DNA of 20,857 bases from a virus, in the IMG/VR virus record IMGVR_UViG_3300030430_003776, positions 1-20,857 of that record; one strand, 5' to 3'. Under the pieces are notes generated by a model. It was not told the DNA's origin. It saw nothing but the letters and a program-made list of their open reading frames with translations, and searched no databases. How positions within the stretch are numbered: position 1 is the stretch's first letter; each line of letters begins with the position of its first letter. Below are positions 2,370-18,000 of this stretch, piece by piece. The position numbers were made by a program, and so were the translations under genes.

Positions 2370-2930
2370 ATGTCTAACAAACTAACAGAAGAACTTAAAA
2401 TAAAAATTAGAGATGAATTTGTCCACGGTTCGGTCGGGGAAAATGGGTCAAGGGTTTTTCTAACCATCGATAAATTGCACAAAAAGTATGATGTTTCTCG
2501 TGCCACATTATTTAGATATTCTTCAGAGGAAAATTGGCAATCGCAAAAAAACAAAATTCAATCAGAGATTCAACAAGCTTTAGATGATGATCGTGTTTTA
2601 AGAATTATTAATGATTCGAAAAAACTTGATGATACTGCTATACGGATAGCACAGGCTCTTCTAAACAGCGTTGGTAAAAAATTACAGGCATCTCAGGTTG
2701 CAGAGCAAAATAAAACTCAATTAGGATTGCTTACTATTTCAGAATTAAGAGATGCCTCACATATCGCGCAAAATGCGCAGAAGCTTGGAAAGTTAGCGCT
2801 TGGAGAAGCGCAAGAAATCACAAAGGTGTCAGCAGATGTTAACAACCCAGAATCCTTCCGCAGAGTTATGGAGCAATTGGACGAACTTGCGGAATCAAGG
2901 TCACAAAGAGACAGCGATTTTATACACTAA
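2370..2930 (+). CDS. Terminase small subunit (putative)
   Basis: A 186-residue protein. Residues ~30-60 (FLTIDKLHKKYDVSRATLFRY) form a helix-turn-helix of the type used by small terminase subunits to recognise the packaging site; the rest is predicted helical, suited to oligomerisation. The strongest evidence is position: the gene directly precedes and overlaps the large terminase gene. The small subunit selects concatemeric phage DNA and hands it to the large subunit for cutting and translocation. The ribosome-binding site before the ATG at 2370 is weak (GGTTAAG), so other nearby starts are possible. Sequence divergence is normal in this family, so function is inferred from the helix-turn-helix plus synteny. 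Confidence 0.72.
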   Translation: MSNKLTEELKIKIRDEFVHGSVGENGSRVFLTIDKLHKKYDVSRATLFRYSSEENWQSQKNKIQSEIQQALDDDRVLRIINDSKKLDDTAIRIAQALLNSVGKKLQASQVAEQNKTQLGLLTISELRDASHIAQNAQKLGKLALGEAQEITKVSADVNNPESFRRVMEQLDELAESRSQRDSDFIH

Positions 2931-4134
2931 CTGGTTGGACAAAGCGCGAAACGCTCAAATCACTCCCTTGGGTGATTGGCATATTTGGATGATTCAGGCA
3001 GGACGTGGTTGGGGAAAAACTCTGACGGGTGCATATGACACGATTTTATATGCGTTGAGAAATCCAGAAGTGCAAGTTGCGGTGGTTACTCCAACGTTCG
3101 GTGATCTCCGTCGAGTCGCATTTGGTGGTGTTAGTGGTATCCTCAAATTGCTTCCGAAAGATTGCTTACTACAAGGTCGCGGTCAGGGATATAATTCTTC
3201 AGCGTCTGAGATAAGATTATTTAATGGATCAAAAATCATTGGGTTTTCGGCAACCGAACCTGACAGGCTTCGAGGACCGCAGTTTCATCGTGCTTGGTGT
3301 GACGAGTTAGCGGCTTGGAGATATCCAGAAGCCTTTGATCAATTGATGTTCTCATTAAGATTAGGAAAGAATCCAAAGTGTGTAATTACCACAACTCCAA
3401 AACCAACGCAACTTTTGATAAGTCTTTCAAAACGAAAGGATGTGTATATAACTAAAGGAAATACCTTTGAGAACGCTGATAACTTAGCTGAATCCACCTT
3501 GGCAATGTTACGAGAAAGATATGAAGGAACTAATCTTGGCAGACAAGAACTTTATGCTGAAATTATCGAAGATGTTGATGGTGCTTTATGGAATAATCGA
3601 ATGATAAATGATGCAAGACTACCAAAATCAACAAAAGTTGAATTTTCAAAAATATGCGTTGGGATCGATCCTGCTGTTACGTCAAATGTTAACTCTGATG
3701 AAACAGGGATCGTAGTAGTGGCAAAAGACTTCAATAATAAGTATTATTTACTAGATGATAAGTCGGGGAAGTACAGCCCTGACGGTTGGGGTCGGTTGGC
3801 GATTGATTTATATCACAGATATTCGTGCAACCTGATTGTTGCTGAGATCAACAACGGCGGAGATTTAGTGGAACGTTTATTGAAGAGTATTGATCAGACA
3901 GTAAAATATAGGGCAGTTCATGCGAGCCGTGGCAAGATGCTCAGAGCAGAACCCATCTCAGCGTTGTATGAGCAAGGCAAGGTTCACCATCTGGGAGTTT
4001 TTCCAGAACTTGAAAGTCAAATGTGTACATACACTGGCGAATCCAAACCATCTCCTGACCGACTTGATGCGTTGGTTTGGGGATTAACTGAATTAAGCAA
4101 ATCGCGTGGCGATGTGTCTTGGAGAATTTCGTGA
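2836..4134 (+). CDS. terL: Terminase large subunit (ATPase/nuclease)
   Basis: A 432-residue protein. The frame is open further upstream to a TTG at 2800, but I prefer the ATG at 2836: AAGGTG at 2822-2827 lies 8 bases before it, and this start puts the Walker A motif near residue 56, normal for the family. Walker A is GRGWGKT (56-62) and Walker B is WCDEL (154-158); together they power DNA translocation. The C-terminal half holds the RNase H-like nuclease that cuts packaged DNA: GIDPA with Asp278, AEINNGG with Glu337, and PDRLDALVWG with Asp411. The gene overlaps the small-subunit gene by 95 bases in another frame. All key residues are present and the protein looks complete. It acts on the portal vertex during packaging. 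Confidence 0.95.
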   Translation: MLTTQNPSAELWSNWTNLRNQGHKETAILYTNWLDKARNAQITPLGDWHIWMIQAGRGWGKTLTGAYDTILYALRNPEVQVAVVTPTFGDLRRVAFGGVSGILKLLPKDCLLQGRGQGYNSSASEIRLFNGSKIIGFSATEPDRLRGPQFHRAWCDELAAWRYPEAFDQLMFSLRLGKNPKCVITTTPKPTQLLISLSKRKDVYITKGNTFENADNLAESTLAMLRERYEGTNLGRQELYAEIIEDVDGALWNNRMINDARLPKSTKVEFSKICVGIDPAVTSNVNSDETGIVVVAKDFNNKYYLLDDKSGKYSPDGWGRLAIDLYHRYSCNLIVAEINNGGDLVERLLKSIDQTVKYRAVHASRGKMLRAEPISALYEQGKVHHLGVFPELESQMCTYTGESKPSPDRLDALVWGLTELSKSRGDVSWRIS

Positions 4135-6347
4135 TGGCAATATTTGACAGATTTTTAGGAAGAAATAGAAACAAACTACAAACAAAAAATTCATCAATGG
4201 TTGGATATTTTGGAGTGCATGCAATGCCTTCAAAAACAATGACTTATGATGATCTAGCATCTGAAGGATATATGAAGAACGCAATCGTTTATCGATGTGT
4301 TAATGAGATATCGAAGGGTGCGGCTAGTGTTCCCTTTCGAATCCTCAATGCAGATGGCGATAATTTAGAATCACATCCTGCGGTGACCCTTTTAAGTAGA
4401 CCAAATCCACTGCAAAGTTACGCAGAATTTATGAACTCGCTTTTTGGTTTTTTGTTGTTATCTGGAAACAGTTACATCTTGCGAATTGAGGGGATGGGCA
4501 ATATACCGAAGGAGTTGCATTTGTTACGACCCGATCGAATAAATATAAAAGGAAATGGAGGCACTTTTCCTGATCGTTATGAGTACATGCTAAACGGTAG
4601 GGTATCTGACACTTATGATGTGGATCAAGAAAACGGATTCTCTGATTTAAAACAAATTAAATTATGGAATCCACTTGATGATTATTACGGGATGTCACCG
4701 TTAAACGCGGCGGCTGTCGAGGTTGATCAGCACAATCTTAGTAGCAAGCACAACATCAATCTTTTGAATAATGGGGCAAGACCATCTGGCGCGGTAATAT
4801 TCAAACCGAAAGATGATGAAGGATTTGCAGTGAATCTTACAGATAGTCAAAGACAACAACTTTTGACGGACTTGAATAATCGTTTTACAGGTTCTCAAAA
4901 CGCAGGCAGACCATTGTTGTTAGAGGGTGATTTTGACTGGAAAGAAATGGGCTTGTCACCAAAAGATATGGACTTTATAAATCTCAAGCATATGAGTGCA
5001 ACCGATATAGCAATGTGTTTTGGCGTTCCTTCTCAATTAGTAGGAGTGCCAGATGCTCAAACATATGCAAATGTTGCGGAGGCAAGACTGGCTTTGTATG
5101 AGGAAACAATCATACCGATGCTCATGAAAGTGCAATCAGATATCAACGAATGGTTAATGCCTCAGTTCAATGAAGGACTTGAATTTTTATTCGACACCAA
5201 TGAGATTCCTGCCTTATCGGAAAGACGCAAGCGAATATATGAAAATGTTATTGGCGCAGTACGTGAAGGAATCATGACCAGAAACGAAGCGAGAGAGCGT
5301 CTTGGACTTGATGCAGTAGAAGGTGCTGATGGCTTATTAGTCAACGCAAGTCTATTTGCATTAAACGAGGAAAGCCCTGATGAGCCTTTGCAGATGGACG
5401 ATGAAGAGGACGTAAAGTTCTACGATTCAAAGCAAACGGATTTTCCGAATCGCGGTGACGATAAAAAAATATCGTTGAGAAACAGCGAATATCCACAATT
5501 CGATTTTAATTTTTCAAAGAACTTAGCCGATGATATGACTGCTAACGGAAGAAAGATTTGGAGGGCAGGCGGTAATATTAGAGGAACGGAAGCATTTAGG
5601 CTTTGGGAAAAAGCAAGAGAAGGATCACAAACTCCCGCTGTTTTAGATTGGATTAAAGAAAGGGAAGCATGGGCCGCTAGACACTTGGGAGATGGCGATC
5701 AATTTACTGATCCCGATTTAAAACCTACGCTGTCAAATATTGCGGGCATTATAGCACAAATGAAATGGGGCGTGATTAATCCCAAGATTGGCGAACAAGG
5801 AATGAAAGATGCGGTTCTCTCTGTCATCAAAGAGTTAGAGGGAAAGGTCGATGATGAAAAGTACCAGTTACGAAGAGATGTTTTTACAACCTCTGATGAG
5901 GCGTTAGAAAGAGCACAAGAAATAGGTTGTGTTGGATTTCACTCTCATGATGAAGACGGGACGATGATTTACATGCCTTGTCGAACACACGCGGAATACG
6001 AGGAAGCAGTCGGCGAAGAACTAAAGCAAAAAGACCCCTCAAAATTTATTATGAGTGAAAAGATCAAGACAGGTCTCAGGAATAAAGTCGATGATCATAA
6101 TGAAAAATACGGTGATCAACCTACAAAAAGAGCCACCTTTCGAATGCTTGCCGCATCCTTTCGCAGAGGTATAGGAGCCTTCTACAACAATCCTCAATCG
6201 GTCCGTCCAAACGTTACTGGACCTGATCAGTGGGCATTTGCCAGAGTCAACGCTCTTTTATATGCCTTGAGAACGGGGCGATTCCAAGGGGCGGCATTTG
6301 ATACAGATTTGTTACCAAAAGGACATCCAAAAAGTACAAAAAAATAA
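4134..6347 (+). CDS. HK97-type portal protein with long C-terminal extension
   Basis: A 737-residue protein starting at the ATG at 4134, which shares one base with the terL stop; GGAG at 4120-4123 supports it over the TTG at 4119. Residues ~1-405 are an HK97-family portal (VYRCVNEISKGAASVPF near the start, then LSGNSYI, HLLRPDR, and SATDIAMCFGVPSQLVG), the ring through which DNA enters and leaves the head. Usual HK97 portals are about 400-450 residues. The remaining ~330 residues form three further modules: ~465-550 (charged, with 'AWAARHLGD'), ~575-625 with a Cys-His cluster (Cys599, His603, His605, Cys616, His619), and ~640-737 with NPQSVRPNVTGPDQWAFARV and TDLLPKGHP. I have seen such modules in head proteins of marine phages; their function is unknown. 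A single uninterrupted frame joins all parts. Confidence 0.93.
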   Translation: MAIFDRFLGRNRNKLQTKNSSMVGYFGVHAMPSKTMTYDDLASEGYMKNAIVYRCVNEISKGAASVPFRILNADGDNLESHPAVTLLSRPNPLQSYAEFMNSLFGFLLLSGNSYILRIEGMGNIPKELHLLRPDRINIKGNGGTFPDRYEYMLNGRVSDTYDVDQENGFSDLKQIKLWNPLDDYYGMSPLNAAAVEVDQHNLSSKHNINLLNNGARPSGAVIFKPKDDEGFAVNLTDSQRQQLLTDLNNRFTGSQNAGRPLLLEGDFDWKEMGLSPKDMDFINLKHMSATDIAMCFGVPSQLVGVPDAQTYANVAEARLALYEETIIPMLMKVQSDINEWLMPQFNEGLEFLFDTNEIPALSERRKRIYENVIGAVREGIMTRNEARERLGLDAVEGADGLLVNASLFALNEESPDEPLQMDDEEDVKFYDSKQTDFPNRGDDKKISLRNSEYPQFDFNFSKNLADDMTANGRKIWRAGGNIRGTEAFRLWEKAREGSQTPAVLDWIKEREAWAARHLGDGDQFTDPDLKPTLSNIAGIIAQMKWGVINPKIGEQGMKDAVLSVIKELEGKVDDEKYQLRRDVFTTSDEALERAQEIGCVGFHSHDEDGTMIYMPCRTHAEYEEAVGEELKQKDPSKFIMSEKIKTGLRNKVDDHNEKYGDQPTKRATFRMLAASFRRGIGAFYNNPQSVRPNVTGPDQWAFARVNALLYALRTGRFQGAAFDTDLLPKGHPKSTKK

Positions 6348-8042
6348 ATGGCAATTCAAGCAACCAAACAAATTGTCGGATTTCGGCAGGGTAGAATTAA
6401 CGCCAGAAAATATGCAAAACAGCAGGCAAGACTGCGCGATAATCTCGCTCGTGGATTCCAAAGAAAAATAGAAACGAGTTTCAATAAAAATGTCAACATA
6501 ATATCAAGAACAATCACGGAAGACTCTATGATGAGCAGTGGCAACGTGGTTGCTCTGATTGATGATGAATTAGAAAAAGTTATAAAAGCGCAACTCAAAA
6601 GAGTTTTCAAAGCCGTCTATGATTACAATGATGATGCCTATAACAAGATAACTCAAAAACAAGAGGAGCCGTTTGACTTTGGTCGCTCTATTGAATTTGA
6701 AGAAGTGGTAGCACAATATTTTTCATCAAGAGAACCTTTATTCGCAAACATATCAAGAAATCAAGGAATCCTGATTCTGCGAGAAGTGGAACGATTAAGA
6801 TTAGAGGATTTATCAGTCGATCAAATAGGAAGAGAACTTCGCAAAAAATTTAGAAGAATTAACAGAAACCGATCCGCACTAATTGCTAGAACAGAAACCC
6901 ATTCGGCAACTGGATTTGCTCATCATAATTATCACAAAAATGTAAGTGATTCTTATGGTGTATCGATGATAAAAGAATGGGTTGCAACAAATGATGGGAG
7001 AACGCGACCTACTCATGCTGAAGTAAGTGGTACAAAAATATCGATGGATGAGTCATTTAAAGTCGGTGGACGTGAGATGGATTTTGTGGGCGATCCCAAG
7101 GGCGGTCCTGCCAACGTTATCAATTGTAGGTGTGTTATTGTTTATGCGGATGCAGAAGATGATGTGACTCAAGGGAGGGTATCTCAAGAAGATATTGATA
7201 TCGATTTTGATCCCAACGAAAAGCCATATATCGATGGTATTGAAGCTGTTTCGATTAAGAGTGGGAAAAAGTGGCAAAAAGAATTAAACGAAAATCTTTC
7301 TCCTTTGTTGGCAAAGGTTGCAAACGCTTTAAGGAGACCAGAGAGAATACAAAAAGGAAGGGGTTCATTTACTCCGTATGCGGCGGGCATTATTAGAACA
7401 CCGGTTGGATTAGATAATAAATTTGGAAAGACGATTAAGAAAGACGGAACATTTGGCAAAGAAATAAAGTCTAAAAATTTAGTGCTTTCTCATGAATACG
7501 GTCATCACGTTGATTATTCTTTGGGGTACAAGTTAGAAGGTACAGGTGATGTAATTATCTCTAAGAAAATTTTTGAAAATTCTGTTAATCAAACGAGAGA
7601 CGAGTATAAGTTTTTTTATTTAGCAGGACAAAGAAGTAAAGAACCTGATCTTTTTTCAAGACGAGAGAAACTTTTGAAAAGATTTGAAAATGAACTGTTT
7701 GAAACAAAAGAAGTCGGCAAGACCGTTTCAAGGTATGGTCGAAAATACACCTTTTCGCGAAAAACAAAAATATTTAAGTTCGAAGGAGCGCATATGGTGA
7801 GTGATATTATTGATGCACTTACCAAAGGAGAATTTCACGATATACTAAAAAATTGGGGGCATGGCATGGCTTATTACAGAAGAAAAGATAGTGATTTTAA
7901 AGAAATATTCGCCAATATGTATGCAATTCATCATATACCAGAGGCGATGCAATTTATGAAAAAACATTTTCCTTTGATCGTTGATTCTTTTGAAAAGGCG
8001 ATGGAAGAATTTGCTAAAACAGGACTAATTACGGGAGGATAA
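6348..8042 (+). CDS. MuF/SPP1 gp7-like head protein fused to HExxH metallopeptidase domain
   Basis: A 564-residue protein starting immediately after the portal stop with no clear ribosome-binding site, so probably translated by reinitiation. Residues ~1-265 are a phage head morphogenesis domain (Mu F / SPP1 gp7): ARTETHSATGFAHHNY near 180, then WVATNDGRTRPTHAEVSGT and a closing NCRCVIVY (259-266). Members bind inside the portal and are ejected with DNA. Residues ~300-564 are an added domain with VLSHEYGHHVDY (HExxH, zinc ligands His382 and His386, catalytic Glu383). Downstream, WGHGMAYY (503-510) and FKEIFANMYA (517-526) offer Glu519 as third zinc ligand. This is the layout of zincin metallopeptidases attached to MuF proteins. 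Known MuF fusions with toxin domains are considered polymorphic toxins; an effector role here is inference. An intact active site suggests an active enzyme; a substrate cannot be named. Confidence 0.88.
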   Translation: MAIQATKQIVGFRQGRINARKYAKQQARLRDNLARGFQRKIETSFNKNVNIISRTITEDSMMSSGNVVALIDDELEKVIKAQLKRVFKAVYDYNDDAYNKITQKQEEPFDFGRSIEFEEVVAQYFSSREPLFANISRNQGILILREVERLRLEDLSVDQIGRELRKKFRRINRNRSALIARTETHSATGFAHHNYHKNVSDSYGVSMIKEWVATNDGRTRPTHAEVSGTKISMDESFKVGGREMDFVGDPKGGPANVINCRCVIVYADAEDDVTQGRVSQEDIDIDFDPNEKPYIDGIEAVSIKSGKKWQKELNENLSPLLAKVANALRRPERIQKGRGSFTPYAAGIIRTPVGLDNKFGKTIKKDGTFGKEIKSKNLVLSHEYGHHVDYSLGYKLEGTGDVIISKKIFENSVNQTRDEYKFFYLAGQRSKEPDLFSRREKLLKRFENELFETKEVGKTVSRYGRKYTFSRKTKIFKFEGAHMVSDIIDALTKGEFHDILKNWGHGMAYYRRKDSDFKEIFANMYAIHHIPEAMQFMKKHFPLIVDSFEKAMEEFAKTGLITGG

Positions 8043-8045
8043 AAA

Positions 8046-8276
8046 ATGACATTTGAAGAGGCGATGCAAGCGTTTGAAGAATTAGACGAATTTGATGCTA
8101 AAGGATACGCTCGTATTTACAACAAATATTTTGAAGAAAACCTCGATGAAAGATTTTTTTTATTTCAAAATAGCCCTGACGGACAAGCTTTTCAAATTAT
8201 GGAGGCAATTATTTCGGATAAGCCAATTGAAATTGATTTTGATAAAGACGAAGAGAAAGTTCAGGTGGAGTATTAA
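8046..8276 (+). CDS. Acidic 76-residue protein, candidate partner/immunity of the upstream metallopeptidase
   Basis: No family recognised. The protein has 21 Asp/Glu against 7 Lys/Arg, is rich in Phe and Tyr, has no signal peptide or membrane helix, and should be soluble and cytoplasmic. It follows the MuF-metallopeptidase gene by 3 bases, and its strong ribosome-binding site GGGAGG (8033-8038) lies inside that gene's last codons, so the two are closely coupled. It ends just before a strong terminator, making it the last gene of the packaging/head operon. Position, small size and acidity match the usual pattern of an immunity or inhibitor gene behind a polymorphic toxin. That role is inference; it could equally be a head cofactor or an unrelated small phage protein. 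Confidence 0.7.
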   Translation: MTFEEAMQAFEELDEFDAKGYARIYNKYFEENLDERFFLFQNSPDGQAFQIMEAIISDKPIEIDFDKDEEKVQVEY

Positions 8277-8278
8277 AA

Positions 8279-8296
8279 AAAGGGCCGAAGCCCTTT
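8279..8296. terminator. Bidirectional intrinsic terminator with UUCG tetraloop
   Basis: A perfect 7-bp stem (AAAGGGC / GCCCTTT) with a 4-base loop lies between two convergent genes. Read on the - strand the loop is TTCG closed by a C-G pair, the very stable cUUCGg tetraloop, and is followed by a run of seven T, an ideal terminator for the leftward gene. Read on the + strand the loop is CGAA and the tail is TTTATTTTATTT, a weaker terminator for the head operon ending at 8276. Confidence 0.9.
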
Positions 8297-8299
8297 ATT

Positions 8300-8551
8300 T
8301 TATTTGGCGATTGCTTGCGCTAGATGTCTAAAGTAATGCCCGATGTCACCATTTCTAAAATCAATTTGAATCAAAGTAGATTTGATAGCATTTTGCTCTT
8401 GTTCATTAGTGGCTAAAATCGCATCTCTGACTACCGCATAAGGCATCATGTTCATACAAGATCGTCCTTCAACTTCGAATATCATTTCTAAATCAAAATC
8501 TTTTTCTTCGATGAATGTGTTTAGCCAGTTTTCAAAATTTGTTTTTTTCAT
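8300..8551 (-). CDS. Hypothetical 83-residue protein (leftward accessory gene)
   Basis: The only gene clearly on the - strand. It has a good ribosome-binding site (AAAGGGAAG, about 5 bases before the ATG at 8551), its own promoter (8583-8611) and a terminator right behind it, so it is an independent transcription unit. The protein is acidic at the N-terminus (WLNTFIEEKDFDLE...) and ends with IDFRNGDIGHYFRHLAQAIA. I have an impression of similar small proteins of unknown function in marine phages and bacteria, but cannot name a family. No membrane segment, signal peptide or catalytic motif is visible. Such self-contained units inserted among late genes are often called morons and can alter host physiology or exclude other phages; nothing in the sequence shows which. 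Confidence 0.8.
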   Translation of the reverse strand: MKKTNFENWLNTFIEEKDFDLEMIFEVEGRSCMNMMPYAVVRDAILATNEQEQNAIKSTLIQIDFRNGDIGHYFRHLAQAIAK

Positions 8552-10050: not shown

Positions 10051-10947
10051 ATGGTAAAGCGTATGGATGATTCTACAGCCAGAAAGATCGAGGATAACGA
10101 TATTCTCGCATGTGTTGACGCTCTCAGTCAGCAATTAGAAACCGAAGAAAACAAGCACGTTCTCAATGTCAGAGAAACAGAAAATTCTGTCATCTTAGAA
10201 ATGGCAAAAGATATGGCAGAGCAGGAGCCGACAGAGGAAGCAGGCTATCACGAGGATGAGGAAGATGAAGAAGATAAAAAAAATCGTGAGTTTGTTCAGA
10301 TAGCGGCAGAGATCAAGGCAGGACATGAAGAAGATGAGAAAGGTTCCTTTGAAGGATATGGATCAATTTTTGGAAATGTTGATTTAGGGAATGACGTTAT
10401 TCAGGCAGGTGCTTTTCAAAAGAGCATCAAAAAAACAGGACCGAAAGGAGTGAAGCTTTTGTATCAGCATAAGACTGATATGCCAATCGGTGTTTTTGAG
10501 TCTATCGAAGAGGATCAAAAAGGATTAAAAGTTAAAGGACGGCTTGCGATGGGAACACAGGCAGGTCGAGAAACTTATGAATTGATGAAGATGGGCGCAC
10601 TAGATGGCCTATCGATTGGATTTAAGACAAGCGCAAAAGGCGCACATTACGATCCAAAGACACGAAGAAGAATGATTAAAGAAGTAGAATTGATGGAAAT
10701 ATCTGTGGTCACGTTTCCTATGAATCCGCGAGCCAAGATTCGGAAAGTTAAAGGTCAAGACGTTTCAATCAGAGAATGGGAAAATGGACTGCGTGATGCT
10801 TTTAGTTTATCTCGTTCAGAGGCAAAGATAGCCGCCAAAGCAGTACAAGATGCTTTTTATCTGCGCGATGCAGAAATAGAAAAGTGTTTTGAGGTTGATG
10901 CTGTCAAACAACTAACCCAAAAACTTAAATCACTTAAAGAGGACTAA
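10051..10947 (+). CDS. Prohead (capsid maturation) protease, HK97 gp4-like, with acidic N-terminal extension
   Basis: A 298-residue serine protease of the U35 type. The core (residues ~85-235) shows FEGYGSIFGNVDLGNDVI and AFQKSI, then the catalytic His140 in YQHKTDMPIGVF, Ser188 in GALDGLSIGFK and ELMEISVVTFPMNPRA (209-228). It cleaves scaffold domains of the capsid protein inside the prohead. Typical members start close to the FEGY region; here some 85 residues precede it, including a stretch of almost pure Glu/Asp (68-75). No ribosome-binding site is evident before ATG 10051 or the alternative ATG 10063, and the upstream frame closes at 10024, so the start is uncertain. The C-terminal ~60 residues are helical. 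It sits 3 bases before the capsid gene, its substrate. Confidence 0.93.
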   Translation: MVKRMDDSTARKIEDNDILACVDALSQQLETEENKHVLNVRETENSVILEMAKDMAEQEPTEEAGYHEDEEDEEDKKNREFVQIAAEIKAGHEEDEKGSFEGYGSIFGNVDLGNDVIQAGAFQKSIKKTGPKGVKLLYQHKTDMPIGVFESIEEDQKGLKVKGRLAMGTQAGRETYELMKMGALDGLSIGFKTSAKGAHYDPKTRRRMIKEVELMEISVVTFPMNPRAKIRKVKGQDVSIREWENGLRDAFSLSRSEAKIAAKAVQDAFYLRDAEIEKCFEVDAVKQLTQKLKSLKED

Positions 10948-10950
10948 TCA

Positions 10951-12165
10951 ATGAGTGAAGATATTAAAACTTTAGTGTCCGAGATGGGTTCGGCTTTTGA
11001 GGAGTTCAAAAAAAGCTATGACGAAAAATTGGACAAGATGGCTAAAGGACAGGAAGATTCAGCGCTTGATGCTAAATTAGCCGCTATTGAAGCAAAGATG
11101 GACAGCTATGAAGACATCAATCAAAGAATGGTTCAGTCTCAAAAAAGCCAAGAGGCTCTTATGGAGCAGATGGATAGAGTGGAGGTCGCGATGCGCAGAC
11201 CTAACTCTGGATTTTCAACAAAGCAAATTGACGAAGGCATATCAGCCTTTGACGCTTATTGCAGAAAAGGAATTGAGGGATTAAGCCCTGATGAAAAGAA
11301 AGCATTGACTGTTTCTAATGATTCAACTGGCGGATATCTTGCACCTCCTGAGTACGTGAGAGAGTTGATCAAAGATATTACTGAAATATCGCCAATCAGA
11401 TCAATTGCAAGAATCAGACAAACAGCACAGCGTTCAATACAGATGCCAAAGAGAACTGGTACTTTTGCGGCGCAGTGGGTTGCTGAATCAGGAACAAGAT
11501 CAGAGACAACTGGATATCAAGTTGGCTTAGAAGAGATACCTGCACATGAATACTATGCGTTGGTTGATATTTCTGAGCAAGACCTAGAAGATTCGGTATT
11601 TGATCTTGAAGCGGAAATGCAATCAGAATTTGCCGAGCAGTTTGCTAAAGCAGAGGGTGCGGCATTTGTATCAGGAAACGCGGTAGGTAAGCCTGAAGGA
11701 TTCATGACAAACTCTGATGTTTCTGAAGTAGTATCTGGTAACGGAACTGCTTTGACAGGCGATGGTCTTATTACTTTGGTTCACAGCGTAAAAGCTGAGT
11801 ATTCTGCAAATGCGACTTTTGTATTTAACAGGAGCACATTGGCGGCAATTCGAAAGTTAAAAGATACAGCGGGACAATATGTTTTCCAAGCAGGCATGAT
11901 GTTAACTGGTGGACCAATGACGACTGTTCTAGGACACCCGTACATTCAAGCGACTGATATGCCAAACGTAGGAGCAGGTAATTTTCCTGTCGCGTTTGGT
12001 GATTTCAGAAGAGGATACATGATCGTTGACCGCGTTTCTCTTGCAGTTTTACGTGACCCATTCACTCAAGCAACAACTGGAAATATTCGATATGTTGCAA
12101 GACGTAGAGTTGGTGGTCAGGTAATTTTGCCAGAGGCTATCGTTAAACAAAAAGTTTCAGCGTAA
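10951..12165 (+). CDS. Major capsid protein, HK97 fold
   Basis: A 404-residue protein with GAGG upstream. Residues ~1-85 are a charged coiled coil, the delta (scaffold) domain removed on maturation. From ~119 the HK97 family signature follows: TVSNDSTGGYLAPPEYVRE, then IRSIARI, WVAESG, and ALVDISEQDLEDSVFDLE (198-215), AFVSGNAVGKPEGF (235-248), LGHPYIQATDMP, and a strongly conserved end AFGDFRRGYMIVDR...VLRDPFT. This builds the icosahedral shell. Cleavage by the upstream protease probably falls somewhere between residues ~85 and 120; the exact site is inference. Length, domain order and neighbours (protease before it) are typical. Confidence 0.96.
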   Translation: MSEDIKTLVSEMGSAFEEFKKSYDEKLDKMAKGQEDSALDAKLAAIEAKMDSYEDINQRMVQSQKSQEALMEQMDRVEVAMRRPNSGFSTKQIDEGISAFDAYCRKGIEGLSPDEKKALTVSNDSTGGYLAPPEYVRELIKDITEISPIRSIARIRQTAQRSIQMPKRTGTFAAQWVAESGTRSETTGYQVGLEEIPAHEYYALVDISEQDLEDSVFDLEAEMQSEFAEQFAKAEGAAFVSGNAVGKPEGFMTNSDVSEVVSGNGTALTGDGLITLVHSVKAEYSANATFVFNRSTLAAIRKLKDTAGQYVFQAGMMLTGGPMTTVLGHPYIQATDMPNVGAGNFPVAFGDFRRGYMIVDRVSLAVLRDPFTQATTGNIRYVARRRVGGQVILPEAIVKQKVSA

Positions 12166-13016: not shown

Positions 13017-13349
13017 ATGACCACATTATTTCTTGTTCAAGGCGATACTGGTCCACAAATACAGGTAAATCTTACCCGTGCTGACTCAGGTGCGGCGGTG
13101 GATTGTTCTGGTGGTACTTCAACGCTTAAAGTAAGAGCAAGGGGATCAGACACAACCTTATTCACCCTCACTGCCGCTAACACGGGGACAGATTTGCAAG
13201 ATGGAAAATTGATATTTTCTGTGGGTAACAATTTAGCAAGTATTGATGCAGGCAGTTATGAAGGAGAAGTAAATGTTCAATTTTCTGATGGCACAGTGGA
13301 GACTGTCTTCGAAGTTGTCGATTTAGTAATTAGAGATGATTTTAGTTGA
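13017..13349 (+). CDS. Putative baseplate/fibre-attachment protein (BppU N-terminal-like beta domain)
   Basis: A 110-residue protein, AAGG ribosome-binding site at about 13004. The sequence opens with FLVQGDTGPQIQVNLTRADSGAAVDCSG and continues TSTLKVRARGSDT...GKLIFSVGNN...AGSYEGEVNVQFSDGTVETV, which matches the pattern of the N-terminal beta-sandwich of BppU-type baseplate proteins ('G D T x P .. v .. D .. G .. vdLtg .. v .. G .y .. ei .. dG'). These domains anchor fibres or receptor-binding proteins to a baseplate. The gene overlaps the repeat protein downstream by 4 bases, so the two are translationally coupled and may be structural partners. Identification is by pattern only. Confidence 0.72.
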   Translation: MTTLFLVQGDTGPQIQVNLTRADSGAAVDCSGGTSTLKVRARGSDTTLFTLTAANTGTDLQDGKLIFSVGNNLASIDAGSYEGEVNVQFSDGTVETVFEVVDLVIRDDFS

Positions 13350-14584
13350 GTTTAATCAAGTTAAATGTAGTAAGTAAATCTTTAAATAAGGATGAAGTAG
13401 ATAAATCCTTACAAAAATCAGTAACGGACAAATCATTACGACAATCCATAACGGATTTAACTCTATTTGCCACACCCATCAGCAAAGCGATGATTGCCAG
13501 TTACGCAACTGGTCAATTTCTAATTGTAAAAGAATTTTCAGATGCGCTTACTGTATCTCAAAACCTAGTATTACAATCAGGAAAATCGCTTACCAATATC
13601 GCATCGCTTGTTGATGAACCATCATTAGGTTTTGTCAAAAGTTTTGCAAACTCAACCTCCATTGCAGATGAGCCTGCGTTTCCTTTTGGAAAAGTGCTTT
13701 CAAATACAATCTCATTTGATGATGAGCCTTCCTTTGGATTTGGACTTGCTTTTTCAAACTCAGGTATTGTTTTAGATTCTCCATCCTTGGGATCAGGTAA
13801 AACGTTCTCTAATTCTGCGGGTTTCACAGATGATGAAATAATCGTTCCGCAAAAAGTTTTAAATAACGCCGCAACAGTCTTAGATGAGCCATCTTTCCCT
13901 TTTGGCAAAATACTCTCAAATGATTTTGTTGCATCTGATTTACCATCATTGAATCCAGAAAAAGTGTTTAACAATTCTGGGGCGTTTTCCGACGATGAAG
14001 TGTTCGGTAATACCAAGGCATTAAATGATCAAGGAAGTGCGGGAGAAAGCGAAATACGAGGTTTAAGTAAGGGTTTAAGCGATAGTTCCGTGCTTGCAGA
14101 TCAAGAAGCATTGCAAGTTACAAAAATTTTGTCAGATGCTTTTGTAGGACAAGATAATGATCTTCTAGGAATCGCGAAGCCATTTTCTAACGCTTTTATA
14201 GGATCAGATAATGATACGTTGCTCGTAGGAAAGGTTTTTGCAAATAGCGCGGCATTTACAGATGCACAAGACTTGCCGTTGACAAAAGTTGTGAGCGATT
14301 CGGCAAACTTTACTGATGTACCACAATTTGCAAGAGATATCTTTTTAGCTGATACTGCTTTTGTTACCGATGATGCTGACGGTATAGCAGGCGATGATTC
14401 AACTTTTACTTTCATAAAAACTGTTTCTAATTTCTCAGTTTTGACAGATAATGATACTATTGGTTTCGGAACTGTCCAAAACAACGGTATTGGGCTGACT
14501 GATGCAGGAGTTGGCAGGAGTCAAGGTTACTGCGCTTTTGATTATTTCGCAGAGGATTATGTTGGAACAAGTTTCACTTTTTGA
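13346..14584 (+). CDS. Repeat-built putative tail fibre/structural protein (eighteen 18-residue repeats)
   Basis: A 412-residue protein. It starts with a TTG at 13346 that overlaps the previous stop (TTGA); the next in-frame ATG would remove 48 residues, so the TTG is the likely start. Residues 11-37 are three 9-residue units beginning K-S-L and ending in D. Residues 62-393 are eighteen units of exactly 18 residues, with one 8-residue insertion (350-357), of consensus K-[VTI]-[FL]-S-[ND]-[SA]-x-x-[FVL]-x-D-[DE]-[PE]-x5. The C-terminus contains DYFAEDYVGTSFTF, an ending I associate with virion proteins of marine phages. Such regular spacing with alternating hydrophobics suggests a repetitive beta-structure, such as a fibre shaft. 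Its position between a BppU-like gene and tail fibre genes supports a tail or baseplate role. Function is inferred. Confidence 0.85.
   Translation: MSLIKLNVVSKSLNKDEVDKSLQKSVTDKSLRQSITDLTLFATPISKAMIASYATGQFLIVKEFSDALTVSQNLVLQSGKSLTNIASLVDEPSLGFVKSFANSTSIADEPAFPFGKVLSNTISFDDEPSFGFGLAFSNSGIVLDSPSLGSGKTFSNSAGFTDDEIIVPQKVLNNAATVLDEPSFPFGKILSNDFVASDLPSLNPEKVFNNSGAFSDDEVFGNTKALNDQGSAGESEIRGLSKGLSDSSVLADQEALQVTKILSDAFVGQDNDLLGIAKPFSNAFIGSDNDTLLVGKVFANSAAFTDAQDLPLTKVVSDSANFTDVPQFARDIFLADTAFVTDDADGIAGDDSTFTFIKTVSNFSVLTDNDTIGFGTVQNNGIGLTDAGVGRSQGYCAFDYFAEDYVGTSFTF
13376..13456 (+). repeat. Three 9-residue (27-base) repeats, half the length of the main repeat
   Basis: KSLNKDEVD, KSLQKSVTD and KSLRQSITD follow each other without gaps; a fourth block of 9 (LTLFATPIS) may be a degenerate copy. 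The period is half of the 18-residue repeat that follows in the same protein. Confidence 0.75.
13529..14524 (+). repeat. Tandem array of eighteen 54-base coding repeats
   Basis: The array encodes the 18-residue units at residues 62-393, interrupted once by 24 bases. Example units are KSFANSTSIADEPAFPFG, KVLSNTISFDDEPSFGFG and KPFSNAFIGSDNDTLLVG. Protein units keep Lys1, Ser4, Asn/Asp5 and Asp11; the DNA has diverged considerably, so the repeat is old and under protein-level selection. Confidence 0.85.
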
Positions 14585-14596
14585 TAAGGTATTAAT

Positions 14597-15049
14597 ATGA
14601 ACAATCAAACAAACATCAAACTTAACGGAGAACTAGAGATAGTTTTACGGGACAAGTTTGGGAAAATTAAAGAAAAAAGAACTGAGAAGAATTTGATCGT
14701 TACGGTTGGTTTGACGTTCATTTGTTCTCGTATGACAGGCACATCTAAAAGCGTTATGTCTCACATGGCTCTTGGATCAGGTACAACTGCGGCGGCGGCA
14801 GGTCAAACCGATTTGGTATCGATTCTAGGCTCGAGAGAAGCCCTTGACAGCTCAACGCCATCAACTAATACCGTTGTATATGTTTCATCTTTTGAAGCAG
14901 GAGAAGGCACTGGCGCGGTTACAGAGGCAGGCATCTTCAATGCAAGCAGTAGTGGTGACATGCTTTGTCGTACAGTTTTCCCTGTAGTAAATAAAGCATC
15001 AGACGATACAATGTCTGTAACTTGGACTATTACACTCACAGCATCATAA
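14597..15049 (+). CDS. Small phage tail-associated protein
   Basis: A 150-residue protein with AAGG at 14586-14589. It begins with a beta-rich domain (LNGELEIVLRDKFGKIKEKR, NLIVTVGLTFICSRM) and contains the blocks SHMALGSGTTAAAAGQTDL and FEAGEGTGAVTEAGIFNASS, followed by MLCRTVFPVVNKASDDTMSVTWTI. I recognise this layout from many marine phage genomes as a small structural protein close to tail fibre genes; exact virion location is not established to my knowledge. Repetitive Gly/Ala and Thr/Ser content and an all-beta profile fit a tail or fibre accessory role. It lies 11 bases before the giant fibre gene and probably shares its transcript. Confidence 0.8.
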   Translation: MNNQTNIKLNGELEIVLRDKFGKIKEKRTEKNLIVTVGLTFICSRMTGTSKSVMSHMALGSGTTAAAAGQTDLVSILGSREALDSSTPSTNTVVYVSSFEAGEGTGAVTEAGIFNASSSGDMLCRTVFPVVNKASDDTMSVTWTITLTAS

Positions 15050-15059
15050 GAGTTAGCAC

Positions 15060-18000
15060 ATGGCTACGATAGTCACGCGCAGTGGTAAAGGATCACCTCT
15101 TACTAACAATGAGGTTGATGCCAACTTTACCAATCTAAATACCGACAAACTTGAAGTTGGTGGGGGCACTTTGACGGGTGCTCTCACAATTTCCTCAGGT
15201 GGTTTGACGGTTAATTCTGGGACAGTAAATCTTAATACAACATTCCAATCCACAGATGACATCGTTCAAATCGATTTTACTGATAATGATACAACCAACT
15301 CCATCACATCCTCTGGGGTTGGGTTTCGGTTTCTGTCAGGAGGCAGTGAAAATGCAAGATTGAAAAATGATGGAACGTTTTTGATTGGTAAGACCGCAAA
15401 TGGTGTTGCAACTCTTGGTTTTGAAGTACGAAGTTCAGGTATTCTTGCAGTCAATAGAGATGGTAATGTTCCGGTATTTTTTGGGAGACACACAAGTGAT
15501 GGCGATATAATTCAGTTTCGCAAAGATACAACCGTCATAGGCAGTATTGCATCACGTTCTGGCGCCGTCACCACGATGATTTTTGATCCACGTGCAAATG
15601 GATCAGGAATAACTGGCACAACAAACGGAATTATCCCAACAAATCAAGCAGGAACACCAACAAATAATCATGTTGATTTAGGATCAACGACTAATAAATT
15701 CAAAGACTTACATCTAAGCGGAACTATCTCTAGTGGCGAAATCAGTGCAAACTCAGGGAACACAAATACTGTAGCAACATTCACATCAACAGATACGGGC
15801 GCAGGCATAAATTTAACAGATGATTCTGGAACCTCTACTCTTCAAACAAATGGAGCAAATCTCAGAATTGGTGTTGATGAAGACGGAGCAGTAAATAGTT
15901 CAGCAATACAATTTAGAGTTGATGGATCAACAAAAGCAACCATTGATGATAGCGGTCTGTTCACTGCCAACGCAGGTATCTCATCAACGGGATCAGGCAC
16001 ATTTGGCTCATTGAATGTTGATGATATAAGCATAAATGGGTCAAGCATTTCAGATTCAGGCAACCTTACTTTAGATGTTGGGGGTGACATCAACCTCGAT
16101 GCGGATAGTGGAAATATAAAACTTTCAGACGGTGGAACAGAAGTTGGTAGATTTTTGTTAAATGATAGCAATCATTTGAAATTAAAATCAATTCAATCAA
16201 ATGCAGACATTAAATTTCAAGGCAATGATGGTGGCGTTGGAATCACAGCCCTCACTCTGAATATGTCAGACGCAGGTCAAGCAGAATTTAACGCGGGTGC
16301 TAGTTTTACAAAAAATATAGAAATAAACGGTGTTAATACAACAAGTGGTTGTCATATTCAATTCACAAACGCGGCGGCGAGTAAAGTTTATCAGATTGGT
16401 GCAGGTCAGGCAGGTGTGACTAACGCGGGTTTTGTTTTACGAAATGTCACTGACAGCACTTTTCCTTTGATTATTAGCGATGCAGGGGCGGCTACATTTT
16501 CTTCAACAATATCTTGTGGTGGTGATGTAACTACAACTGGTCATTTTATCGCAGATACTCATTTTAAGTCGTCAGATGGTAATGCCACTTTATCTGCTAC
16601 TGGCGGGGGTGGTATATTTTTAAGACCTGACGGTAACACAAATACTGCCAATCAAGTATTTATTGAATCAGGAACAGGCAACGCAACATTCTCAGGCACT
16701 ATCTCTAGTGGTGTTATTACAAGCACAGGACTTACTGTAAATGCCTCAAGTCCTACAGTAAATATTCTAGGCGCATCTTCAACAGATGCAACCTTAAATA
16801 TTACAAGTGCGGGAATAACACAGTATGCATTTGTAACTTCTGGGACGGATAGTAGCCTATCAATTAAAAAAGATGGTTCAACAAGATTAAAAATAGACAC
16901 TACTGGCAACGTCAACATCCCCAACGGCTCGCTTATGATCGGAGCGACTACTGCGCCCTCACATAAGGTTCATATCGAATCTGGTACAACTAATGTTGGA
17001 ATACAAACAATATCCACAGATGCGGGCGCATACATGGGATTTGAAGATGATAGCACAGGCAATACAGGTTCAAATTCAAATGTATTTATAGGTGCAAATG
17101 GAAATAATTTTCTAATTCATACAAACGCCAGCGAGCGTGTTCGTATTGATAGTTCTGGTAACTTGCTTGTTGGGACCACCAATACTACATGGCAAACAGT
17201 AGAAGGTTTACGTTATTTCTCTGGTAACTCATTAATTGTCACACGTGATAGCGATGAACCTATGAGCTTGAATCGTCTCTCTGATGATGGAGATTCATTG
17301 ATTTTAAGGCGTAATGGTACAGCGATAGGAAGTATTGGTACACGAGCAAGTGTGCAGTTATACATTGGACAAGGAAACAGTGCATTGTTGTTCGTGGATT
17401 CTACAAATCAACTTTTACCGCATGATATTAGTTCAAACGCACCCACAGATAATGTATTAGATTTAGGTGGATCATCAAATCGCTTCAAAGATTTACATCT
17501 ATCAGGGTCTATCTCTAGTGGTGCTATTACAAGCACAGGGCTTACTACAAGCGGAACCTTAACTCAATTTAATACTCATAATTCTGCATCTCAACTACTG
17601 GGTATAAATATTGTTACAGACGCAGGTTCGACAAGCTATACACATCCTTATTTAGATTTTAGAAGATGGACAGGTGTAAACACTAATCACTACACAGCAA
17701 GCATAGAAGTCGCGCCAACAAATGCAGATGCAAACGCGATTGTGTTTATGTCAGACACAAAAAGTACAAACACAAAAGCCACCACTGAGCATATGCGGAT
17801 TGACTCATCAGGTCGCGTGGGCATAGGTACAGCTAGTCCAGACGCAAAATTAAGAATTGATCAAGATGCAAATACTGTCGCCTTGAAGGTTACTGGCGGG
17901 GGTGTGGGTAACCCTATCGCGCAGTTTGTAAGAGATGTAGGTGGTTCAGGAACAGTGAGCATAGGCGCTAGTGGCGGTGATCCACAAATACAGTTTAACC

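What the first reader, a model, noticed from the sequence alone, without database searches (positions are those of the whole stretch)
6348..8276. MuF head protein carrying an intact zincin metallopeptidase, followed by a coupled acidic gene: possible phage-delivered toxin/immunity pair
Seen: a SPP1 gp7/Mu F head domain (residues ~1-265) joined in one frame to a ~265-residue domain with HEYGH (382-386) and a downstream Glu519 in FKEIFANMYA. It is followed 3 bases later by a 76-residue protein with 21 acidic and 7 basic residues, whose strong ribosome-binding site lies inside the toxin-candidate gene. Known: MuF domains fused to variable C-terminal toxin domains have been described as polymorphic toxins of temperate phages, often with an immunity gene directly downstream. 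Inference: the metallopeptidase is packaged and ejected with DNA, acting on a host protein or on competing phages, and the acidic protein protects the producing cell. An alternative is a virion-internal protease that processes head or ejection proteins.
Basis: partly seen in the sequence, partly recalled or inferred. Interest (0 to 1): 0.8.

Follow-up and report, generated by a model that had tools for sequence, protein, structure and literature searches.

The report
Swappable phage-head protease with partner gene
A phage head protein carries an intact zinc-protease tail that, together with the small gene next to it, is gained, lost and swapped as one cassette between near-identical phages; this is the signature of a toxin delivered with the phage's DNA plus the antidote that protects the cell making it.

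Summary
ORF 6348-8042 is a MuF head protein fused to an intact zincin (HEYGH 382-386, Glu519), and a 76-aa acidic gene follows 3 bp later. AlphaFold2 models the zincin core at pLDDT 92-98 with the M34-type (lethal-factor/Pro-Pro-endopeptidase) fold.

The pair is real. In 53 of 54 non-redundant loci carrying this zincin the next gene is a homologous 54-76-aa acidic protein (the 54th has a probable one). The family is unknown to Pfam and PHROGs and is predicted to form three helices.

The decisive tests are natural exchanges. Three phages with 97-99% identical portals and 99.5-100% identical capsids (two loci) have a short MuF protein and lack both zincin and partner. Two phages with identical MuF residues 7-263 carry either zincin + its partner, or an unrelated domain + a different small gene, with borders at the MuF end and just after the small gene. 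Two further exchanges agree. On this MuF trunk at least four C-terminal domain types occur; short MuF proteins lack a recognisable partner.

I conclude this is a MuF polymorphic toxin/immunity-type cassette with an undescribed zincin and partner family. Not shown: toxicity, packaging, host target, partner binding. The carriers lack recognisable integrases, unlike published temperate carriers.

The parts
6348..8042 (+). MuF head protein with C-terminal zincin, 564 aa
6348..7139 (+). MuF trunk (Pfam core nt 6819-7139): predicted portal-binding, packaging part
   Evidence: PF04233 E 7.8e-16; PHROG 2468 E 1e-40; gene lies directly after the portal gene 4119-6347
6480..7160 (+). diverged tract: identity to otherwise near-identical phages drops from 88-95% to 56-82% (recombination tract)
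   Evidence: L081; starts nearer 6260 against L083
7200..8039 (+). zincin metallopeptidase domain, M34-type fold
   Evidence: model pLDDT 92-98 in core; fold match Z 10 to lethal factor catalytic domain, Z 7.9 to Pro-Pro endopeptidases
7491..7505 (+). HEYGH zinc-binding/catalytic motif, residues 382-386
   Evidence: also HExxH in loci found by other motifs
7857..7904 (+). GHGMAY...E: GH504-505, Tyr509, third zinc ligand Glu519
   Evidence: kept in 56 of 56 relatives
8033..8039 (+). ribosome-binding site of the partner gene, inside the zincin gene
   Evidence: sequence GGGAGGA
8046..8276 (+). partner gene, 76-aa acidic three-helix protein, proposed inhibitor/immunity protein
   Evidence: model mean pLDDT 81.5; no Pfam or PHROG match
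7161..8274 (+). cassette absent from the three closest relatives (zincin + partner together)
8279..8296 (+). terminator-like hairpin directly after the partner; shared backbone resumes here

Best explanation
It is a MuF-type polymorphic toxin/immunity cassette. The MuF trunk takes a few copies of the protein into the phage head (inferred from SPP1 gp7). The C-terminal M34-like zincin is an effector that enters the next cell with the DNA and cleaves a host or rival-phage protein (inferred). The acidic three-helix protein is translated from a start site coupled to the end of the same gene and is thought to bind the zincin and silence it in the producing cell (inferred). Toxin domain and partner move as one unit between phages (shown).
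For: (1) Intact zincin: HExxH, GHxxxY and Glu conserved; fold. (2) Conserved homologous partner directly downstream or overlapping in 53 of 54 non-redundant loci plus one probable; a profile finds exactly one copy per locus, 168 loci. In the records checked it is present in all nine with this zincin and absent from the four without it. (3) Joint loss: L081-L083 have MuF 82-86%, portal 97-99% and, where the contig covers them (L081, L083), S78 protease 97-99.7% and capsid 99.5-100% identity; all have a 275-aa MuF protein with neither zincin nor partner. (4) Cassette exchange: L198 (this zincin + its partner) and L199 (unrelated ART-like domain + a different, basic small gene) have identical MuF residues 7-263; DNA identity is 97% up to the MuF end and 94% from 6 bp (L198) or 2 bp (L199) after the small gene. 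L220/L071 and L195/L198 show the same. (5) Across 75 MuF relatives with complete ends, an ATG small ORF lies directly downstream in 13 of 14 with a C-terminal domain against 5 of 61 by the counted table where most lack one; those 5 do not resemble the partner. (6) Characterised MuF toxins have small neutralising partners that occlude the active site (PMC12226406).
Against: No toxicity, packaging or binding was shown. The complex was not modelled: the partner half of the single-chain model had pLDDT 44-69. No tyrosine integrase was found in 24 of 25 records and 17 of 17 further metagenomic records, so the lysogen-protection logic of known MuF toxins may not apply. Independent evolutionary contrasts for 'domain with partner' number only 5 (all concordant in most pairings, p 0.06). 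The window's own partner is a divergent family member (leave-one-out 14.5 bits, E 0.02 for 14,073 candidate ORFs, about 1.5e-6 for the single expected position).
Confidence: 0.75

Rival explanations
1. The zincin is an injected anti-defence or host-takeover protease (a small polyvalent-type effector), and the small protein is a folding or packaging chaperone or safety catch, not an immunity protein in the competitive sense.
For: MPTase domains are the commonest domain of polyvalent early-phase effectors (PMC5512222). The carrying phages show no integrase. The partner is conserved as one family with its zincin type.
Against: The one-to-one exchange of domain and small gene, with unrelated small genes for unrelated domains, is what cognate inhibitors show. 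Dedicated chaperones could show the same pattern.
Confidence: 0.17
2. The zincin works inside the virion or at ejection as an autoprotease that cuts the MuF protein or ejection proteins.
For: Such a role is proposed for MPTase domains of polyvalent proteins, for example phage P1 DdrB (PMC5512222).
Against: Near-identical phages do without it, and on an identical MuF trunk it is replaced by an unrelated domain with no HExxH. Autocleavage explains neither that nor the partner.
Confidence: 0.06
3. The zincin is a head-maturation protease needed for capsid assembly.
For: The gene lies in the head operon, and PHROG 4728 is labelled head morphogenesis.
Against: The phage already has a Peptidase_S78 prohead protease (10051-10947). 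Two phages with 99.5-100% identical capsid protein and 97-99.7% identical S78 lack the zincin, and their 41-43 kb records hold no other copy.
Confidence: 0.02

Closest known systems
MuF polymorphic toxins (Jamet et al. 2017, PMC5576092)
   Same: MuF trunk gene directly after the portal gene, variable C-terminal domain, small ORF directly downstream. 20% of their 191 putative toxins are metallopeptidases; [quoted passage not shown]
   Different: Those toxins are reported from temperate phages of Firmicutes. Here they are metagenomic phages without recognisable integrase. The zincin has no Pfam model and the partner family no Pfam or PHROG model. Cassette borders are resolved here on near-identical backbones.
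Apk2/IapK (MuF toxin with proteinaceous immunity, Paulet et al. 2025, PMC12226406)
   Same: MuF trunk + enzymatic C-terminal domain + downstream protein that neutralises it by binding and occluding the active site.
   Different: The enzyme is a (p)ppApp synthetase, from prophages. Neutralisation is shown there but not here.
Listeria phage B054 gp4/gp5 and Clostridioides phage phiCD418
   Same: MuF-position head protein with a zincin of the same profile (E 2e-17 and 3e-9) and a 50-56-aa gene directly downstream resembling the partner.
   Different: Very divergent sequence. The partner match is weak on its own: 11.3 and 7.4 bits.
M34-type zincins: lethal factor catalytic domain and Pro-Pro endopeptidases
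   Same: Fold (Z 10.2 with rmsd 3.1 over 155 residues; Z 7.9) and zinc-ligand arrangement.
   Different: About 16% identity or less. Different carrier; nothing known of shared targets. Shared fold only.
Polyvalent-protein MPTase domains (Iyer et al. 2017, PMC5512222)
   Same: Zincins carried in phage proteins thought to be injected with DNA.
   Different: Those proteins are large and multidomain. Which of their MPTase clades, if any, this one belongs to was not tested.

Membership tests
MuF polymorphic toxin | N-terminal MuF domain | tested here: met
   PF04233 E 7.8e-16, over cut-off
MuF polymorphic toxin | gene directly downstream of the portal gene in the packaging module | tested here: met
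   portal 4119-6347, MuF ORF starts at 6348
MuF polymorphic toxin | variable, exchangeable C-terminal domains on a conserved trunk | tested here: met
   at least four domain types plus short forms on one trunk; tree needs 11-12 changes of type; exchange on identical MuF residues 7-263
MuF polymorphic toxin | small cognate ORF directly downstream, absent from short MuF genes | tested here: met
MuF polymorphic toxin | toxin domain homologous to domains of other polymorphic toxin families | tested here: inconclusive
   same fold class as ALF-type metallopeptidase toxins; homology to a specific toxin family not shown
MuF polymorphic toxin | carried by temperate phages | tested here: inconclusive
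   no integrase in nearly all metagenomic carriers, but records may be incomplete; the Listeria/Clostridioides-type relatives include integrase-bearing records
MuF polymorphic toxin | toxicity relieved by the partner | not testable with these tools
   needs an expression assay
MuF polymorphic toxin | packaged in the head and ejected | not testable with these tools
   inferred from SPP1 gp7 (PMC6316719)
zincin metallopeptidase | HExxH helix plus downstream Glu ligand in the zincin fold | tested here: met
head-maturation protease | required with the capsid for head assembly | tested here: not met
   absent from phages with 99.5-100% identical capsid protein

The most novel reading that the evidence does not exclude
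MuF toxin/immunity cassettes are used by phages that never lysogenise. Strictly lytic environmental phages trade protease or ART-like effector domains on a fixed head protein, so the antidote protects the infected factory cell against its own or a co-infecting sister phage's effector, rather than protecting lysogens.
Probability: 0.35. Interest if true: 0.75.

Novelty: new member of a known kind. Interest (0 to 1): 0.6.

Why it matters
It supplies what the MuF-toxin idea has mostly lacked: natural exchanges on near-identical phages with cassette borders resolved to a few bases. These show that the enzymatic domain and the small gene are one unit and are dispensable for building the head. It adds an undescribed zincin family with one conserved candidate inhibitor family, found from environmental phages to Listeria and Clostridioides phages. 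It also shows such cassettes in phages with no sign of lysogeny, which questions the view that MuF toxins serve lysogens. The pairs are small and ready for direct neutralisation assays.

Tried and rejected
Complex modelling: the window genes are in frame across one stop, so a single chain was modelled with TAA read as Gln. The model that was sent therefore had almost no alignment for the partner and gives no interface. A GTDB genome scan with HEYGHHVD found no relatives. The viral structure library gave only two weak head-protein matches (best E 5e-3). No Pfam, PHROG or NCBIfam family was found for the partner. Pseudoalteromonas phage HS6 gp28/gp27 was a false lead: the zincin profile barely matches and the small gene does not. 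Head-maturation protease was rejected. For L260 no convincing partner was found; a minus-strand ORF is only a guess.

Full report
What is there. The window is a 20,857-bp linear IMG/VR virus record holding a head-gene operon: terminase (2800-4134), portal (4119-6347), the MuF protein (6348-8042), a Peptidase_S78 prohead protease (10051-10947) and an HK97-type capsid protein (10951-12165).

The zincin is intact and conserved. 79 IMG/VR loci encode relatives of the domain at 23-35% identity. Their ORFs carry it at the C-terminus. HEYGHHVD was one of the search patterns, so its conservation is biased. GH504-505, Y509, E519, D486 and D489 were not in the patterns and are kept in 55-56 of 56 non-redundant sequences. 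Loci fetched with other motifs also have HExxH wherever covered. AlphaFold2 gives pLDDT 92-98 in the core, with the HEYGH and Glu on separate helices. The fold comparison ranks the M34-type zincins first, Z 10.2 and 7.9, with unrelated chains at 4 or below; a profile search of PDB sequences agrees weakly (E 4e-4). This is a shared fold at about 16% identity and says nothing about target.

The partner is conserved. In 53 of 54 non-redundant loci with downstream DNA, a 54-76-aa acidic ORF starts within about 30 bp of the zincin stop, usually overlapping it; the 54th (L079) has a probable one. They form one family with a Y...FG.EP ... AI..n.P pattern that no Pfam or PHROG model covers. It is predicted as three helices with an unstructured acidic tail. 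The family profile finds exactly one copy in each of 168 loci (these include the same contigs fetched twice). In the whole records checked it is present in all nine with this zincin and in none of the four without it. The window's copy is a divergent member: 14.5 bits when left out of the profile. Listeria phage B054 (gp4/gp5), Clostridioides phage phiCD418 and Flyfo myovirus Tbat2_7 have the same arrangement.

Natural exchange experiments. (a) The three closest relatives by MuF (L081, L082, L083; MuF 82-86%, portal 97-99%; S78 97-99.7% and capsid 99.5-100% in L081 and L083) have a 275-aa MuF protein that stops right after the MuF domain; zincin and partner are both missing. The 41.5- and 43.4-kb records of two of them hold neither elsewhere. 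Identity falls from 88-95% to 56-82% from about nt 6480 (L081), or about 6260 (L083), to 7160, and the backbone resumes at 8275, at the partner's stop and a terminator-like hairpin. (b) L198 and L199 have identical MuF residues 7-263 and 97%/94% identical flanks. L198 carries this zincin and its partner; L199 carries an unrelated domain, ART-like by eye only, and a different basic 64-aa gene. Homology resumes 6 bp (L198) and 2 bp (L199) after the small gene. (c) L220 and L071 (MuF 95%) carry two zincin types, each with its own small gene; L195 and L198 likewise.

Survey of the trunk. MuF relatives at 39-87% identity carry this zincin, a second zincin type, a long third zincin type, the ART-like type, or nothing. 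The counted table for adjacent ATG small ORFs is 13 with and 1 without among those with a C-terminal domain, against 5 with and 60 without among short MuF genes; the five are unrelated to the partner profile. The Fisher p of 4e-10 ignores kinship. On the tree the independent contrasts number five, nearly always concordant. Domain types change 11-12 times on the MuF tree. One row of the tree labelled short (L197) is cut by its contig end and was left out of the contrasts.

Interpretation. These are the published hallmarks of MuF polymorphic toxins (PMC5576092), and neutralising partners have been demonstrated for another MuF toxin (PMC12226406). SPP1 gp7, the model MuF protein, is drawn into the procapsid by the portal in few copies (PMC6316719). 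By analogy the zincin rides into the next cell, and the partner keeps it silent in the producing cell. Shown: architecture, conservation, joint movement, dispensability for the head. Inferred: packaging, delivery, toxicity, inhibition. A chaperone role for the partner and an anti-defence role for the protease remain open; the first would be separated by an inhibition assay.

What differs from the known kind. MuF toxins were described as exclusive to temperate phages. Among the metagenomic records searched here only one of 25 and none of a further 17 has a tyrosine integrase, though the same search found integrase in two of four Listeria/Clostridioides-type prophage records. Serine recombinases are likewise absent from all but the same record. 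Incomplete records prevent a firm claim of lytic lifestyle.

Noticed in passing
L191, L192, L193, L195, L220, L238 (C-terminal extensions): A second MuF-borne zincin type (HE-F/L-GH...EWFAENF.xWA) with its own small acidic downstream genes in two apparent subfamilies; only sub-threshold Pfam matches (ATLF, M78).
   Followed up: partly
L199:1968-3008, L201:4802 onward: ART-like MuF C-terminal domains (YRGV...GIFGNGLY) followed by basic 64-76-aa genes sharing an SRWFA motif; no family match.
   Followed up: partly
L252, L260, L261, L262: A long third zincin type (361-499 aa) with a 96-aa small gene; in L260 a candidate small gene may lie on the opposite strand.
   Followed up: partly
window 8300-8551 (-): Minus-strand 83-aa gene of PHROG 6004 (unknown function), convergent with the partner across the terminator; kept in L082 (75%) and L083 (95%) but not matched in L081.
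   Followed up: no
window 5885-6000 and L001, L046, L056, L071: A DUF3721-like segment (RDVFTT..EA..RA.EIGC.G.HSHDE.G..MPC) sits at the portal C-terminus in the window, but in the gene after the partner (joined to the S78 protease) in these relatives.
   Followed up: no
L090:3721-3873: Unannotated 50-aa TTG-start ORF in Clostridioides phage phiCD418 at the partner position.
   Followed up: partly
window 13346-14584 and 15049-20857: Highly repetitive ORF (FxxSxSFGFGKxFSNS repeats), then a long stretch to the window end with no plus-strand ORF of 70 aa or more that closes inside it, possibly a tail-fibre gene running off the end.
   Followed up: no
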